Of a DNA stretch of 64,000 nucleotides, positions 34,864 through 54,980 are shown piece after piece. The notes beneath the pieces are model-generated. The model saw only the letters and a list, made by a program, of their open reading frames with translations. It was not told the origin of the DNA and ran no database searches. Both the position numbers and the translations under genes were made by a program. Source of the stretch: Verrucomicrobiaceae bacterium (GTDB taxonomy: Bacteria > Verrucomicrobiota > Verrucomicrobiia > Verrucomicrobiales > Verrucomicrobiaceae); the NCBI GenBank assembly GCA_947458455.1, contig CANGYJ010000001.1, positions 186,001 to 250,000 on the forward strand, written 5' to 3'. Numbering within the stretch: position 1 is the stretch's first letter; each line of letters begins with the position of its first letter.

Positions 34864-37800
34864 ATGATCGCCTCCCTGCTGCAAGAGGACAAAGTCCTCA
34901 AGAAAGTCACCCAGACGCCGAAAGACCAGAAGCCCGCTTTCAAGTGGAGTGCCTTGTCTGTCGCCAGTTCCATCGGGGAGACTCTTCCCGCGTCCATCAA
35001 GGTCAACGTCGGCGGTGCCGAGCGTGATTTCGACGCCGAGGAAATTGCAGACACCGTCGGCAGCGCCCTGGCGGATCTCTTTCTCGCCCGTCAAAAGGAA
35101 GGGGACATCTACACCGAGCACAATCAGCAGCTCGTGCAGAAGATCTCGCGGGCGGTCACGGAGGAAATTTATCAGCGCACGGCCCAGCTTGCCGAAGGGA
35201 GCGGCAAATCGGCCAACCTGAACGCCAAGGACATCTATCACTGCATCGAGCGGGCACTCATCCATCACAACGCCCACGACGTCGCCCGTACCCTCGCCGA
35301 AAAGCGCAAGCGTGCCTCCGCCTACGATCCCTTCGCCGATTCCACCCCTCAGCCGCTCATCGTGAATACCAAAGTCATCCGCCGCAGCGGCCAGCTCGTG
35401 CCGTGGAACCACAACAAGATCGAGATCGCCGTCCGCAAGGCCTTCCTCTCCATGGAGCTCGATTCCTCCCCCGCCGTTCAGGTCGCCGAGACCGTCAGCC
35501 GCGCCATCGCCGAGGAAAATAAGCAGTTCATCCACATCGAAGACGTGCAAAACCTCGTCGAGGAAGAGCTCATGAAGCAGGGCTTCTTCAAAGTAGCCCG
35601 CGCCTACATCCAGTACCGAGCTCTCCGCACCAACATGCGCGAGGATGATGAGCAGCAGGCCGCTGTGGCCAATGAAATCGAGAGCCAGGATCAGCAGGCC
35701 CTCATCCTCGTGAAGACCGCCGACGGCACTTCCTTCCTCTGGGACGGGGCCGATCTGAAGAAGCGCATCGATTTCGCCATGCTTGGCCTCGATTTGTGCC
35801 TCACCCGTGCCGAGATCGAGATGGAGCTCCGCCGCTCGCTCAATACCGACATCACGCTCGAGCATCTCAAGCAGACCATCACGCTCAATGCCAAGACGCT
35901 GATGCAACGGGACGCCGACTTCACGAAGTTCGCCGCCCGCATCCTGCTCAGCTACATCTATGAGGAAGTCCTCGGCTGGGACATCGTCCGCGATGGCATT
36001 GAGGCCCTCCGTGACTTCCACCGCCGCAGCTTCCGCCGCAACCTCGCCCGTGGTGTCGAGATCGACCGCTACAATCCCCGCCTGCTTCAGTTCGATCTCG
36101 ACAAGCTCGCCGACGCCCTTGATCCCGCCGCTGATCTCGATTTCGACTTCCTCGGCATTCAGACCCTCTACGACCGCTACCTCATCGTCGATAAGAAGGT
36201 CAAGCCCGCCAAGCGCCTCGAAACGCCCCAGCTCTTCTGGATGCGTGTGGCCATGGGTCTCAATGTCGGTGAACGCGATGGCAATCCCGAGGACAAGATC
36301 ATCTCCATCTACAAGCTCTACAAAGGCCGCCGCTTCTGCTCCAGCACGCCCACGCTCTTCAACAGCGGCACCCTGCACAGCCAGCTCTCCTCCTGCTACC
36401 TCTACAAGGTGGATGACAGCATCGAGTCCATCATGATCCGCGGCATCGCCGAAAATGCCTTCCTCTCCAAATGGGCCGGCGGTCTCGGTGGTTCGTGGAC
36501 CAGCGTCCGTGGCACCGGCGGTTACATCAAAGGCACCAATGGCGAATCCCAGGGCGTCATTCCTTTCCTCAAGCTCCACAATGATCAGCTCATCGCCGTC
36601 AATCAGGGCGGGAAGCGCCGTGGCTCCGGCTGCGCCTACCTCGAAGTCTGGCACAACGACATCGAGGACTTCCTCCAGCTCCGCATCAATACTGGCGACG
36701 AGCGCCGCCGCACGCACGACCTCAACACCGCCAACTGGATTCCGGATCTCTTCATGAAGCGCCTGGAGGCCCGTGAAAACTGGACCCTCTTCCGTGCCAA
36801 CGAAGTCTCCGATCTCCACGATCTCTACGGCTCCGCCTTTGAAAAGCGCTACGCCGAATACGAGGTCATCGCCAAGACGGGCAAGATCTTCTCCAAAGAA
36901 ATCCCCGCCGTCGATCTCTGGAAGCTCATGCTCAAGGCCATCTTCGAGACCGGCCATCCTTGGATCACTTTCAAAGATCCCTGCAACGTTCGCAGCCCGC
37001 AGGACCACGTCGGCGTCATCCACAGCTCCAATCTCTGCACCGAGATCACGCTCAATACCTCCGCCGACGAAACCGCCGTCTGCAATCTCGGCTCCGTCCT
37101 CATCGACAACCATCTCGATGACGCCGGTAACATCGACCACGCCAAGCTCCGCGAGACCATCCGCAGCGCCGTCCGTGCTCTCGACAACGTCATCGACATC
37201 AATTTCTACCCCACCGAGGCCGCCAAGACCTCCAACACCCGCCACCGCCCCATCGGCCTCGGCGTCATGGGCTTGCAGTACGCCCTCTACCGCAAAGGCA
37301 TCTCGTTTGCTTCGAAGGAAGCCGTCGATTTCAACGACGAGATGATGGAAGCCATTGCCTACTACGCCTACGAAGCCTCCAGTGATCTCGCCGCCGAGCG
37401 TGGTCAGTATTCCAGCTACAAAGGCAGCAAGTGGGATCGCGGTCTCATGCCGCAGGACACCCTCGATCTTCTCGCCAAAGAACGCGGCCAGGAAGTCGAT
37501 GTCCCTCGCGGCGGCAAGATGGATTGGTCCGCCCTCCGTGCGAAGATCGCCAAGCAAGGCATGCGCAATAGCAACGTCCTCGCCATCGCCCCGACGGCCA
37601 CCATCTCGAACATCATGGGCTCCAGCCCCTGCATCGAGCCCCTGCTCAGCAACATGCTCGTGAAGGCCAATCTCTCCGGCGACTTCATGCTCCTCAATCC
37701 CTTCCTCATTCGCGACCTTAAAAAACGCGGCCTGTGGACCGCTGACATCCAGAACAAGCTCAAGTACATGGACGGTGAGATCGAAGCCATTGAGGAAATC

Positions 37801-38169
37801 CCCGTGGACCTCAAGCGCCGCTACGCCACCGCCTTCAGCATTGACTGGGCCTGGGTCGTCGATGCCGCCGCCCGCCGTCAGAAGTGGATCGATCAAAGCC
37901 AGAGCGTGAACCTCTTCTTCGGCAGCACCGAGATGAGCACCCTCAGCCACATGTATCGTGGAGCCTGGCGCAAAGGCCTCAAAACGACCTATTACCTCCG
38001 CACCCGGAGCGCCTCGAACATCGAGAAGAGCACCGCCGAATTCCAAAAGGAAATCAGCAGCACCGTCATCAACGGAGCCATCGGTGCCAAACGCTACACG
38101 GCGGAAGAAGTGCAGGCTTGCTCCATCGAAGCCATGCGCAATGGCGGGACGTGCGAGGCGTGTCAGTGA
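34864..38169 (+). CDS. nrdA: Ribonucleotide reductase large subunit with three ATP-cone-like regions
   Basis: 1101 aa catalytic subunit that reduces ribonucleoside diphosphates. N-terminal region: a degenerate cone (about 45-150), a clear ATP-cone (about 170-260, VIRRSGQLVPWNHNKIEIAV) and a third cone-like segment (about 280-370, VKTADGTSFLWDGADLKKRI). The barrel carries FCSSTPTLFNSG, SNLCTEITLN with the thiyl Cys region, and PTATISNIMGSSP. The C-terminal CEACQ holds the redox Cys pair. The protein is longer than the usual 750-850 aa because of the cones. Confidence 0.96.
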   Translation: MIASLLQEDKVLKKVTQTPKDQKPAFKWSALSVASSIGETLPASIKVNVGGAERDFDAEEIADTVGSALADLFLARQKEGDIYTEHNQQLVQKISRAVTEEIYQRTAQLAEGSGKSANLNAKDIYHCIERALIHHNAHDVARTLAEKRKRASAYDPFADSTPQPLIVNTKVIRRSGQLVPWNHNKIEIAVRKAFLSMELDSSPAVQVAETVSRAIAEENKQFIHIEDVQNLVEEELMKQGFFKVARAYIQYRALRTNMREDDEQQAAVANEIESQDQQALILVKTADGTSFLWDGADLKKRIDFAMLGLDLCLTRAEIEMELRRSLNTDITLEHLKQTITLNAKTLMQRDADFTKFAARILLSYIYEEVLGWDIVRDGIEALRDFHRRSFRRNLARGVEIDRYNPRLLQFDLDKLADALDPAADLDFDFLGIQTLYDRYLIVDKKVKPAKRLETPQLFWMRVAMGLNVGERDGNPEDKIISIYKLYKGRRFCSSTPTLFNSGTLHSQLSSCYLYKVDDSIESIMIRGIAENAFLSKWAGGLGGSWTSVRGTGGYIKGTNGESQGVIPFLKLHNDQLIAVNQGGKRRGSGCAYLEVWHNDIEDFLQLRINTGDERRRTHDLNTANWIPDLFMKRLEARENWTLFRANEVSDLHDLYGSAFEKRYAEYEVIAKTGKIFSKEIPAVDLWKLMLKAIFETGHPWITFKDPCNVRSPQDHVGVIHSSNLCTEITLNTSADETAVCNLGSVLIDNHLDDAGNIDHAKLRETIRSAVRALDNVIDINFYPTEAAKTSNTRHRPIGLGVMGLQYALYRKGISFASKEAVDFNDEMMEAIAYYAYEASSDLAAERGQYSSYKGSKWDRGLMPQDTLDLLAKERGQEVDVPRGGKMDWSALRAKIAKQGMRNSNVLAIAPTATISNIMGSSPCIEPLLSNMLVKANLSGDFMLLNPFLIRDLKKRGLWTADIQNKLKYMDGEIEAIEEIPVDLKRRYATAFSIDWAWVVDAAARRQKWIDQSQSVNLFFGSTEMSTLSHMYRGAWRKGLKTTYYLRTRSASNIEKSTAEFQKEISSTVINGAIGAKRYTAEEVQACSIEAMRNGGTCEACQ

Positions 38170-38211
38170 CGTGTTCTAGAAGTAGATTGTCTAGGTCAAC
38201 CGTTTCAACAA

Positions 38212-38625
38212 ATGAGTGAGGAATCCGTGATTGAGATAGCTCGCAAGGCTCAAGAGCGCCTGCGACAGTTGCGAGTTAACGAGGCAAGCATTTCGGGAGC
38301 TATGCAGCAGCAGATTGCTGAAGCCCGAAGGCTTGCGGGAATGCAACATGCTTTAGACAATCCTAGGGTTGTTCGACTTCAAGCCGAAATTGCTGAATTA
38401 CGGTCTGAGTTACAAAAGCAGGCAAATACGCTGAGTTTAGAGAGGGCTGGCAACCAGAGACTAACTCAACAGGCAACCGAGCTTTCTGACTCCATAGCAC
38501 AGCTGCAGCAGAAGGAAGAATTGGCTTTCTTGTTGGGTAGAGTCTCACCGGATGCACATGATGCCTTGTTCACCGATGCCGTATTTAGGGAGAAATTCTT
38601 TTGCCGATATACGACGTTCAACTGA
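38212..38625 (+). pseudogene. Coiled-coil 5' part of a broken nucleotide-cyclase gene
   Basis: 137 aa. Almost wholly helical: VIEIARKAQERLRQLRVNE, then RLQAEIAELRSELQKQANTL with heptads to about residue 105, then LAFLLGRVSPDAHDALFTDA. The frame runs out (FREKFFCRYTTFN) just where the overlapping next frame begins a cyclase domain. The region is visibly AT-richer than its neighbours, a sign of transfer. I read it as the N-terminal half of one protein separated from its catalytic domain by a small indel; it could still make a free coiled-coil protein. Confidence 0.6.
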
Positions 38626-39211
38626 GTTGATGCTGAAAGCGCGTAAACCTCAACTGTTTGCCAAGTTTATAAGCGAAACGTGCTCGGAATTAGAGAGCAT
38701 AATAAAACTCTCCCACGGGGTATTTGATAAGTTTACTGGGGATGGAGTGCTCGCGTTTTTTCCCGATTTTTACAGTGGCCCAGACGCAGGCCTATTGGCT
38801 CTTGATGCAGCTCAGCGTTGCCAGGAAGCGTTCTCTGAGTGCTACAAACAACACAGACGATCATTCGCCACTGTTATGACTGATGTTGGTTTGGGAATCG
38901 GCATCGATTACGGCCCCGTTCATTTGCTTAGAGTTGCGGGAGGAATAACTGTTGTTGGAAGCCCTGTGGTGTACGCGTGCCGTCTATCAGGCGCTCCGGC
39001 AGGACATGTTTATGTAAACCAACCTGCATTCGAGGTTATGTTCGATAAACATGGTAGCTATTGCTACGCATCGAAGTCTAGTTTGGACATCAAACATGAG
39101 GGGAATATTCTGTGTTACGATGTGAAACTCGGTAAGACTCGATTCAATGCAGCGAAACCTGAATGGCAACAGGCTCACGAAGTCAGCAATAATTCGGGCG
39201 AATTAGAGTAG
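38552..39211 (+). pseudogene. Class III nucleotide cyclase domain, out of frame with its N-terminal part
   Basis: 219 aa as read from ATG 38552. SFADIRRSTELM carries the first metal Asp (D19) and FDKFTGDGVLAFFPDF the second (D64). VGLGIGIDYGPV and TVVGSPVVYACRLSG follow; the usual Asn of the VNxAxR block is replaced, while the Arg is kept. The first beta strand before ADIR is missing, so the domain looks truncated. Homologous standalone cyclases include the Pycsar defence enzymes; no membrane or other effector gene is adjacent. Identity as a cyclase is firm, activity is doubtful. Confidence 0.65.
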
Positions 39212-39231
39212 TCGGTTTCGACTCTTGCCAG

Positions 39232-40300
39232 AGCCCAACGGGCTTGCGTCATGCAGCCCCGTAATGACGAGCTCCAGCGCGTGCTCTCCGGGGGGGCTCT
39301 CATTCACGACACGATCCCCGCCTTGGAGCGAACCTCATCGGGGTTTCGTCATCCGAACGGCAGCGTGACCTCGCCCTGCTCCTGACGGGACCGCGTTGCG
39401 GTCCGAGACCAGGAAGGGGAGGCGGCATCTGATTCCCAAGGGAGCCTCGCTGAGGCTCGGCACCCTTGGGCTCCACGTCGGAACCGCGTTGCGGTTCGAT
39501 TGAGCCTCATCGTGTTGATCGACACGACAGGCCATCTCAAGCCCAACGGGCTTGCGTCATGCAGCCCCGGAGTGCCGAGCGATAGCGAGCGCTCTCCGGG
39601 GTCCTCGCATGCGCCCAATGATCCCCGCAACCGGGCGAACCCCACCGGGGTTCCGTCATCCGAACGGCCGCGTGGACTCGCCTCGCGCCTGACGGGACCG
39701 CGTGGCGGTCCGAGACCGGGAAGGGGAGGCGGCATCTCATTCCCAAGGGAGCCTCGCTAAGGCTCGGCACCCTTGGGCTATAAGCCTGAACCGCGTTGCG
39801 GTTCAATGAGCCGAATCGCGTGGATCGACACGACCGGCCATCCCAAGCCCAACGGGCTTGCGTCATGCAGCCCCGGAGTGCCGAGCGATAGCGAGCGTTC
39901 TCCGGGGACCCCGCATCCACCCCACGATCCCCGCCTTGGAGTGAACCCCACCGTGGTTCCGTCATTCGAACGGACGCGTGACCTCGCGCCGAGCCTGACG
40001 GGACCGCGTGGCGGTCCGCAGACCGGGCAGGGGAGGCGGCATCTGATTCCCAAGGGAGCCTCGCTGAGGCTCGGCACCCTTGGGCTGCATGACGGAACCG
40101 CGTGGCGGTTCGATGAGCCTCATCGCGTTGATCGACACGACAGGCCATCTCAAGCCCAACGGGCTTGCGTCATGCAGCCCCGGAGTGCCGAGCGCCAGCG
40201 AGTGCTCTCCGGGGACCTCGCATCCACCCCACGATCCCCGCCTTGTTGCGAACCCCACCGGGGTTCCGTCACTCGAACGATCGCGCGACCTCGATCCACT
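39232..40300. repeat. Tandem array of ~307 bp units rich in 7+3+7 hairpins
   Basis: Units begin at 39232, 39540, 39846 and 40153 (steps of 308, 306, 307 bp); the fourth is cut short near 40300. Each unit carries several 17-nt hairpins with 7-bp stems and 3-nt loops: CAAGCCC/GGGCTTG, GAACCCC/GGGGTTC, GGACCGC/GCGGTCC, GAACCGC/GCGGTTC, plus a longer nested stem CCCAAGGG/CCCTTGGG enclosing GAGCCTC/GAGGCTC-like arms and a CCCCGGAG/CTCCGGGG stem. Loops vary (GTT or GTG) while stems are kept. Open frames here exist because the period is near a multiple of three. No gene is supported. Confidence 0.85.
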
Positions 40301-40384: not shown

Positions 40385-40425
40385 CAAAAACAAAAGCCCC
40401 ATGAGACGGGCGTCCCATGGGGCTT
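40385..40425 (-). terminator. Rho-independent terminator of mdh
   Basis: On the minus strand AAGCCCCATGGGACG pairs with CGTCTCATGGGGCTT, with one mismatch and a 2-nt gap, followed by TTGTTTTTGG. It begins 19 bp after the mdh stop codon and is the clearest intrinsic terminator in the window. Confidence 0.85.
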
Positions 40426-52892: not shown

Positions 52893-54980
52893 ATGCCGCA
52901 CATCCTGTTTGCTCACGAAAAGCTCCTCTGGCTCCTCCTCCTGGTGCCGCTGCTGCTGCTTTTCAAAGCGTGGCTCGATGCACGCTCCTCCAAAGCCGTG
53001 AGGGCCTTCACCGCGCCGCGCCTCCGCAGCCTCCTCGTCACCGGCATCTCCAAAGCCCTCTCCTGGACTATCTGGACGCTCTACCTCCTCGCCCTCGCCT
53101 TCCTCATCATCGCCGCCGCCAGGCCGCAGTGGGGGGCTGAGACCATCGACAGGCCGGATAAAGGCCGAAACATCTTCATCGCCCTCGATACCTCTCGCTC
53201 CATGCTCTCTCGCGATGTCGCCCCGGATCGCCTCACGCGGGCAAAGCTCGCCGCCCATGATCTCATCATGGAACTCAAAGGGGAGCGCATCGGCCTCCTC
53301 GCCTTCGCCGGGCGTGCTTACCTCCAGGCTCCGCTCACCACCGATCACAATGCCATCCTCGAGTCTCTCCAAGTCTTCGACCAGAACGTCATCGAATGGG
53401 GGGGGAGCAATCTAGCGGACCTGCTCGACGTCACCCTGCGGGCCATCAAGCCGCTCCCCAAGAGCAATTTCGTCCTCATCGTCTTCTCCGACGGCGGCGA
53501 TGCCGATGCCAGCCTCACCACTTGGATTCAAAAGCTCACCTCCGCGCAGGTTTCCGTCATCACCGTCGGCGTCGGCACGGAAGGCGGCACCCTCATTCCG
53601 GATCCCAATGTCCCGGGCGATTACATCCGCGATGAAAACAACAACGTCGTCCGCTCGAAGCTCGAAAAAGGCGTCCTGCAGCAGCTCGCCAGTGCTACCG
53701 GCGGCCGTTTCATCAAGCTCGGCACTCAGCCGCTCAGCCGCGATGCCATCGCTCCCATCATCGCCCGCCTCCGCGAGCAGGAAAACGCCACCCGAAGTCT
53801 CTCCAAACCTATTGAGCGTTTTGCGTGGCCGCTCAGCATCGCTATACTCTTCCTCATGATCGCCTGGATCCTCAGCTCTCTCCCGCGTCGCAAGCCACGG
53901 CCTTCGCTGGCCGCCGGTGTCCTCGCCACGCTCGTGCTCGGCAGTGTGAACGCCGAGGCCAGTTCCTTCGCCGCCTTCTTCCGTCAAAGCGGCCTCTCAC
54001 CGGAGCAGGCACACGAGGCTCTCGTGCAGAAGGATTATGAGAAGGCGCGGGATCTTTACACCAAGCTCCTCGAAAAGGCGGATTACAGCCCTGCCGCGCT
54101 CGCGGAACTGCGCTACGGCCTCGCCTTCGCCGAGCATCAGCTCACGGATTACGACGGCTCCGTGAGGAATTTCAGTGATGCGCTGCATGCCGATGACAAA
54201 GGCCTGCGCATCCGGGCGCATCGCGGCCTCGGTCACACACTTTACGACCAAGGTTCACGGGGCCTCGCTAAGCAGCCCAAGATCACCCTGCAACGCTGGA
54301 TGGATGCGCTCTCCCATTTCGATGCCGCGTTGCAACTCGATCCCAACAACAAAGAGCTTCGTGAGAACCGTCAGCACGTCGCCAACATGCTCACCGAGCT
54401 ACGCCAGGCCCTCGAAGCCATGGAAAAGCAGCAGCAGGGTCAAAAGGGGAAGAAAGGCCAGCAGGGCGAAAAAGGTCAAAAAGGACAGAAGGGTCAAAAA
54501 GGCGAAGAGGGTGAGGGCCAGGAAGGCGAAGAGGGTGAAGGCGAGGGCGAAAGCGGCGATGATAACGGCGCTGGCGATCCCAAACAAAAAGATCGAACCG
54601 GGGAGAAGAAAGGCGACGATGACGGCATCGGCGGCAAAGACGCGCAAAACCTACCCGAAGGCCGCATCCAGGCTGCTGGCGGCAAGAACGGCGAGAAAAA
54701 AGATCCCAAGGGCGAAGGCGGCCTCGCCGAGGAAAAAGAAGGCGAAGGCAAAAAGGGCGATAAGAAGGGGGAAGTCGCTTCCGACGGCGATGGCGATCAA
54801 GAAAAGAAGAACCAAGACCCAAACGGAAAAGACAAAGGCCCCCAGTATTACCGCCGCAATCCCAAGACCGGCTACACGCGTGGCGAAGCGGAGAATTTCA
54901 TCTCTCAATACATGGATGAAATCACCGGACCGATTCACAACACGCAGCGCCCTCCTCAGATCAACAAAAAGGACTGGTGA
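52893..54980 (+). CDS. batB: BatB-BatC fusion: VWA, TPR and Gly/Lys/Glu-rich tail
   Basis: 695 aa. Helices at about 10-28 and 57-76, VWA with MIDAS DTSRS at 99-103, a third helix near 310-330 (LSIAILFLMIAWILSSL), then TPR repeats (about 370-505, DYEKARDLYTKLLEKADYSP). From residue 516 glycine falls at every third position through 540 (GQK, GKK, GQQ, GEK...), a collagen-like tract, followed by Gly/Glu-rich and Lys-rich low complexity to about 650. BatB and BatC are separate genes in many species; here they are one chain. The final block holds RRNPKTGYTRGEAENFISQ. Confidence 0.88.
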   Translation: MPHILFAHEKLLWLLLLVPLLLLFKAWLDARSSKAVRAFTAPRLRSLLVTGISKALSWTIWTLYLLALAFLIIAAARPQWGAETIDRPDKGRNIFIALDTSRSMLSRDVAPDRLTRAKLAAHDLIMELKGERIGLLAFAGRAYLQAPLTTDHNAILESLQVFDQNVIEWGGSNLADLLDVTLRAIKPLPKSNFVLIVFSDGGDADASLTTWIQKLTSAQVSVITVGVGTEGGTLIPDPNVPGDYIRDENNNVVRSKLEKGVLQQLASATGGRFIKLGTQPLSRDAIAPIIARLREQENATRSLSKPIERFAWPLSIAILFLMIAWILSSLPRRKPRPSLAAGVLATLVLGSVNAEASSFAAFFRQSGLSPEQAHEALVQKDYEKARDLYTKLLEKADYSPAALAELRYGLAFAEHQLTDYDGSVRNFSDALHADDKGLRIRAHRGLGHTLYDQGSRGLAKQPKITLQRWMDALSHFDAALQLDPNNKELRENRQHVANMLTELRQALEAMEKQQQGQKGKKGQQGEKGQKGQKGQKGEEGEGQEGEEGEGEGESGDDNGAGDPKQKDRTGEKKGDDDGIGGKDAQNLPEGRIQAAGGKNGEKKDPKGEGGLAEEKEGEGKKGDKKGEVASDGDGDQEKKNQDPNGKDKGPQYYRRNPKTGYTRGEAENFISQYMDEITGPIHNTQRPPQINKKDW

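What the first reader, a model, noticed from the sequence alone, without database searches (positions are those of the whole stretch)
39232..40300. Tandem ~307 bp units packed with 7+3+7 hairpins
Three and a half copies repeat with steps of 308, 306 and 307 bp. Each unit holds several 17-nt hairpins of the same design (7-bp stem, 3-nt loop) plus nested longer stems. Loops change (GTT/GTG) while stems pair, which suggests selection on structure. It is not CRISPR, not a known riboswitch and not credible coding sequence. It may be a structured RNA array, a REP-like mobile array or a recombination substrate. It sits beside an AT-richer, damaged cyclase gene, so the locus looks accessory.
Basis: partly seen in the sequence, partly recalled or inferred. 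Interest (0 to 1): 0.72.

Follow-up and report, generated by a model that had tools for sequence, protein, structure and literature searches.

The report
Tandem two-hairpin DNA repeat, transposase-linked
The stretch is three and a half copies of a 307-base block of paired DNA hairpins, a repeat family scattered through many Prosthecobacter genomes; elsewhere in this genome the same hairpins sit beside a small single-strand-DNA transposase of a type for which no DNA target had been described.

Summary
Observation confirmed: 3.5 copies at 39232-40293, steps 308/306/307, packed with 7+3+7 hairpins. It is not a chance local duplication: a ~269-bp core recurs in 38 of 48 genomes of the genus (Prosthecobacter), this one included.

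The building block is a two-hairpin module: [7+3+7 hairpin]-[10 nt, CGTCATGCAG]-[longer bulged hairpin]. Eleven of 20 pairs show compensatory changes (covariation score 0.311 vs 0.111 shuffled, 0/500).

In this genome the same modules lie directly upstream of an intact Y1 (HuH) transposase gene, and beside all seven close orthologues. The protein has the DHVH / WQ / Y---Q--HH motifs of TnpA-Y1 subclass 1.2, listed as having no REP (Quentin 2018). More widely, 50 of 60 homologue loci carry AG-footed hairpins within 300 nt (shuffled: 3.6), many in the same 10-nt-linker arrangement with other sequences.

Best reading: a BIME-like tandem array of a REP family whose cognate enzyme is a subclass 1.2 TnpA. 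Recognition, cleavage and mobility are inferred, not shown. The site is old: 14 of 37 relatives have the element within 3 kb downstream of nrdA. An RNA role is untested.

The parts
39230..40293 (.). Whole tandem array, 3.5 units of about 307 bp (39232-39539, 39540-39845, 39846-40152, 40153-40293)
   Evidence: TRF and repeat finder
39230..39293 (+). Module A of unit 1, decayed (5 of 7 pairs in the 17-nt hairpin)
39538..39601 (+). Module A of unit 2: CAAGCCC-aac-GGGCTTG, linker CGTCATGCAG, long bulged hairpin
39844..39907 (+). Module A of unit 3
40151..40214 (+). Module A of unit 4 (partial unit)
39435..39497 (-). Module C of unit 1: long hairpin, linker (reads CGACGTGGAG), GAACCGC hairpin
39742..39804 (-). 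Module C of unit 2 (linker reads AGGCTTATAG, AG kept)
40049..40111 (-). Module C of unit 3: GAACCGC-cac-GCGGTTC, CGTCATGCAG, long bulged hairpin
39330..39404 (.). Inverted pair B of unit 1 (first hairpin decayed; second GGACCGC-gtt-GCGGTCC at 39388-39404)
   Evidence: and sequence
39637..39711 (.). Inverted pair B of unit 2 (hairpins 39637-39653 and 39695-39711, CGTCA tags facing each other)
39943..40017 (.). Inverted pair B of unit 3 (39943-39959 with one mismatch; 40001-40017)
40250..40266 (+). First hairpin of pair B of unit 4; the array ends in the spacer after it
34864..38169 (+). nrdA (ribonucleotide reductase, named by eye), conserved upstream landmark of the array
   Evidence: ORF; synteny

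Best explanation
A tandem, BIME-like array of a Prosthecobacter REP family. Its unit is an imperfect palindrome built of two-hairpin modules: a 17-nt hairpin, a fixed 10-nt linker ending in AG, and a longer bulged hairpin. The modules are most likely recognised as folded single strands by a small Y1 (HuH) transposase of subclass 1.2, whose gene stands elsewhere in the same genome (C16:1847-2308) beside the same modules. [quoted passage not shown] This would have spread the ~269-bp unit; tandem growth may be by the same enzyme, by slippage or by unequal recombination. Shown: the repeat family, the module, compensatory changes, association with the gene. Inferred: recognition, cleavage, mobility, the tandem step.
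For: Dispersed copies in own genome and genus; 13-mer CGTCATGCAGCCC about 150 times in 48 genomes, its reversed control twice. Covariation 0.311 vs 0.111 shuffled, 11 of 20 pairs with double changes. Same modules directly upstream of a Y1 gene and beside 7 of 7 close orthologues; genomes with that orthologue have more 13-mers (median 8 vs 1, p 7e-5). Subclass 1.2 motifs kept across 29 homologues; model matches ISDra2 and IS608 TnpA, and TnpA-REP 4er8. AG-footed hairpins in 50 of 60 homologue loci, both sides in 32 (shuffles 3.6 and 0.06; distant DNA 13 and 1 of 116). The 10-nt linker recurs with unrelated stems, and module type follows the enzyme tree (7 changes vs 20 shuffled).
Against: No enzyme activity or excision was seen; no clean empty site was found. 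The copy number is low (8 of the 13-mer here). Five genomes without a found orthologue have five or more copies. The units of the array are only 84-88% alike, and nearer to G016's than to the own C16 copy, so the array is not fresh. Distant homologues (several Bacteroidota) lack such hairpins.
Confidence: 0.75

Rival explanations
1. The array is kept for a role in RNA: transcribed hairpins that terminate, stabilise or regulate the convergent neighbours (cyclase-like gene on +, mdh on -), with the transposase link a relic.
For: Convergent intergenic place, strong folding, compensatory changes, all of which RNA would give too.
Against: No Rfam match. mdh has its own terminator-like hairpin at 40394-40425. 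The same modules stand beside transposase genes and in many unrelated places; mdh is not the neighbour in relatives.
Confidence: 0.1
2. The palindromes belong to another, unseen or lost enzyme, and their place beside the Y1 gene only reflects insertion in a tolerant spot.
For: Some genomes have many copies but no found close orthologue: G013, G037, G015, G016, G001.
Against: 7 of 7 close orthologues have them; different clades of the enzyme have their own hairpin types, and the three best Y1 genes of this genome are each flanked by different ones. Most of those genomes are fragmented drafts.
Confidence: 0.1
3. The elements mark or move accessory-gene cassettes inserted after nrdA, a little like attC sites in integrons.
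For: Genes between nrdA and the element differ by species and are often AT-richer (NACHT, C5 methylase with a BsuBI/PstI-type enzyme, HNH). In G001 a partial element abuts a displaced nrdA 3' remnant.
Against: Many genomes have variable genes there without this element; the nrdA remnant of G038 comes without it; no cassette boundary was shown.
Confidence: 0.04

Closest known systems
REP/BIME with TnpA-REP (RAYT) REPtrons, class 2 of Quentin et al. 2018 (PMC6006769) and Corneloup et al. 2021 (PMC8266576)
   Same: Short tagged hairpins between genes, in inverted pairs and tandem clusters, beside a single-copy Y1 gene; long hairpins with a bulge; AG at the foot
   Different: The enzyme is of subclass 1.2 (Y---Q--HH), not class 2 (Y---NP); foot GCAG, generally NNAG, not GT[AG]G; a second hairpin stands at a fixed 10 nt
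TnpA-Y1 subclass 1.2 (Quentin et al. 2018)
   Same: DHVH, WQ, YI-NQ-EHH, about 150 aa, low copy number
   Different: Listed there as without REP and mostly in Cyanobacteria and Bacteroidetes; here flanked by hairpins, in PVC bacteria
CGTC-tagged REPs (Di Nocera et al. 2013, PMC3733652)
   Same: A CGTC tetranucleotide beside a palindrome; inverted pairs
   Different: Stem 7 and loop 3 instead of 8-9 and 4-5; first pairs not AT; CGTC is inside a linker and not kept in related families; those REPs had no associated transposase
IS200/IS605 elements (IS608, ISDra2)
   Same: Fold and HuH-Y site of the enzyme; hairpin substrates
   Different: No multi-copy insertion sequence seen; repeats outnumber the gene; no mobile unit carrying the gene was shown

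Membership tests
REP/BIME | Short palindromes, repeated, outside genes, in inverted pairs or clusters | tested here: met
REP/BIME | Conserved tetranucleotide 5' of the hairpin foot | tested here: met
   GCAG at the long hairpin; NNAG among homologues
REP/BIME | The tetranucleotide is GTAG or GTGG | tested here: not met
   GCAG in this family; GTAG occurs at another Y1 gene of this genome
REP/BIME | Neighbouring Y1 transposase gene flanked by the same palindromes | tested here: met
   the gene is elsewhere in the genome, not beside the window array
REP/BIME | Cleavage of the folded single strand by the cognate enzyme | not testable with these tools
   needs purified protein
RAYT / TnpA-REP (class 2) | Y---NP motif around the catalytic tyrosine | tested here: not met
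   YIANQEEHH
TnpA-Y1 subclass 1.2 | DH[IV]H, WQ and Y---Q--HH motifs, about 148 aa | tested here: met
   the authors' own profiles were not available
CGTC REP | CGTC at one end of the palindrome | tested here: met
CGTC REP | Stem 8-9 bp beginning with AT pairs, loop 4-5, CCA-like tail | tested here: not met
   7-bp stems, 3-nt loops
Known structured RNA (Rfam) | Match to a covariance model | tested here: not met
   none at E<=1
CRISPR | Short identical repeats with unique spacers | tested here: not met
   307-bp units repeated throughout, spacers included
Integron attC array | attC core sites and a neighbouring IntI | not tested
   no IntI search was made

The most novel reading that the evidence does not exclude
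Two-hairpin modules with a fixed 10-nt AG-ended linker are the general substrate of subclass 1.2 Y1 enzymes in PVC bacteria, a second kind of REPtron that arose on the IS200 side of the family, and at nrdA the elements take part in exchanging accessory genes.
Probability: 0.06. Interest if true: 0.82.

Novelty: new variant of a known kind. Interest (0 to 1): 0.55.

Why it matters
Subclass 1.2 was described without REPs or IS200-type end hairpins, so its DNA substrate was open. Here a candidate substrate with a clear architecture and many natural variants lies next to the gene in species after species, which makes the question directly testable in vitro. It suggests that REP-like systems also go with an enzyme of class 1, and it is a caution for the CGTC-REP question: a CGTC tag beside a hairpin can belong to a different, AG-footed composite.

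Tried and rejected
Rfam (none). Phage records (no match). Reading the array as protein: units of 308, 306 and 307 break the frame between copies, so the long ORFs are not credible. CGTC-REP as the identity: attractive at first, dropped because stems and loops do not fit and CGTC is not kept in related families. Lineage-specific insertion next to mdh: suggested by the lack of tagged hairpins after mdh in relatives, overturned by synteny on the nrdA side. A duplicated nrdA end in G047 was a false lead: the alignment there stopped short of the gene's end (query 1-1054 of 1170).

Full report
What is there. The array at 39232-40293 is real: TRF gives period 307, 3.5 copies, 86% matches, with steps 308, 306, 307. 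Thirteen perfect 7- or 8-bp hairpins with 3-nt loops lie in it, and a single unit folds far better than shuffles (z -4.5). Each unit reads A> B> <B <C: module A (17-nt hairpin, CGTCATGCAG, long bulged hairpin), an inverted pair of 17-nt hairpins with facing CGTCA tags, and module C, the inverted counterpart of A (pair I1). Among the three full copies, hairpins and linkers vary in 12-15% of columns, spacers in 27%. The unit lengths break the reading frame, so it is not coding.

Copies elsewhere. In its own genome (5.35 Mb, 28 contigs) the unit has one other substantial place, C16:2550-2909, plus a single module at C6:150814. Of 96 genomes searched (the window's own included) 39 have a match, all but one in the same genus; named records of close homologues are Prosthecobacter. 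Most full-length copies match query positions 1 to about 269, so the dispersed core is about 269 bp and the rest of the 307 is spacer. The 13-mer CGTCATGCAGCCC occurs 8 times in this genome and about 150 times in the 48 genomes of the genus; its reversed control occurs twice.

Selection on pairing. Forty modules picked by the linker (CGTCATGCAGCC), not by pairing, were aligned; many of their loci had, however, been fetched by similarity to the unit, and ten with odd lengths were left out. RNAalifold finds both hairpins, with 11 of 20 pairs changed on both sides. For that structure 97.5% of cells pair; the covariation score is 0.311 against 0.111 +/- 0.010 in shuffles and at most 0.095 when slid. 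The structure came from the same alignment and the rows are related, so the exact figures flatter it; the number of doubly changed pairs (11 vs 6.5, 0/500) is the safer measure.

The transposase. A 154-aa Y1_Tnp protein (E 2.8e-22) is encoded at C16:1847-2308, directly beside the C16 units. Seven genomes, this one included, carry it at 80-100% identity, and all seven have tagged hairpins next to it. In G029, G025 and G008 the C16 neighbourhood is shared (the large gene at L048:3634-7236, pyruvate-carboxylase-like by eye), so the locus is inherited in place. Genomes with this orthologue have more 13-mers (median 8 vs 1, p 7e-5; five or more copies in 7 of 7 against 5 of 41). The motifs DHVH, WQ, YIANQEEHH match subclass 1.2 of Quentin et al. 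2018, listed there with 'REP: no'. The AlphaFold model (of the 94% identical L096 orthologue, pLDDT 89) best matches ISDra2 and IS608 TnpA; TnpA-REP 4er8 is rank 30.

Beyond the close orthologues. Forty named loci were fetched with the protein, from Verrucomicrobia, Planctomycetes, Bacteroidota and others. Hairpins with 7-8 bp stems flank most of the genes, usually inverted. AG-footed stems of 8 bp or more occur within 300 nt in 50 of 60 loci and on both sides in 32; first-order shuffles give 3.6 and 0.06, distant DNA of the same loci 13 and 1 of 116 segments. Near the genes AG is by far the commonest foot dinucleotide (63 of 118 perfect hairpins), against 15 of 43 far away, where some may be true copies (p 0.05, weak). 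Two-hairpin modules with a 10-nt linker recur with unrelated stems: AATCATTCAG, CATCATCCAG and the like outside the genus, CGCATCATAG in another Prosthecobacter clade; distances scanned from 4 to 20 peak at 10 (33 cases; next 11 cases at 17). Strict modules follow the transposase tree (7 changes vs 20 shuffled). Two other Y1 genes of this genome have other hairpins, with GTAG and TTAG feet. Several Bacteroidota and other distant loci lack such hairpins.

Place. The array lies downstream of nrdA. In 14 of 37 relatives the element lies within 3 kb downstream of nrdA, 13 in the same orientation; two rest on short hits, and some of the 37 contigs end too early to tell. A rough chance expectation is 0.08 genomes. 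So this site is old. G016 has a 306-bp tandem there too. The genes between nrdA and the element differ from species to species and are often AT-richer; the cyclase-like gene is found only here among them. The mdh side is not conserved.

Mechanism. Inferred from work on TnpA-REP and IS608: the enzyme binds the folded single strand, and the tetranucleotide 5' of the foot guides the cut; for REPs the last two bases AG are thought to select CT. The AG kept here fits. What the 17-nt hairpin and the 10-nt spacing do is open; a second subunit bound at a fixed distance is a guess.

Literature. Searches for Prosthecobacter repeats and for later REPtron work found no report of this system; the library holds only open-licence papers, so absence is no proof. 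Di Nocera et al. state that CGTC REPs lack a dedicated transposase; I do not claim to have found it, since these hairpins fail the other CGTC-REP features.

Noticed in passing
window 38169-39230; L178-L214: The 3' side of nrdA is a variable gene slot in Prosthecobacter: a cyclase-like gene here, elsewhere a NACHT protein, a C5 DNA methylase with a BsuBI/PstI-type enzyme, an HNH protein and a weak TIR match. Displaced nrdA 3' remnants in G001 (C54:24737-24836) and G038 (C166:1570-1739) hint at integration at the gene's end.
   Followed up: partly
window 38212-39211: Two overlapping ORFs look by eye like one class III cyclase gene split by a frameshift near 38600; Pfam gives no cyclase match to either part. 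It may be a sequencing error or real decay.
   Followed up: partly
own genome C5:70404-70838 and C2:454758-455180: Two more Y1 genes, each flanked by its own hairpin type (GTAG-CCGTGGGT.., TTAG-CCGGTGGT..).
   Followed up: partly
L054 5760-5910 (G016 C4, contig end): A 21-bp satellite (GGGGGCTCCCTCCACGCCACG, 7 copies) follows the 306-bp tandem and runs to the contig end.
   Followed up: no
window 54432-54546: Short tandem repeats of 18-27 bp, in a possible collagen-like reading.
   Followed up: no
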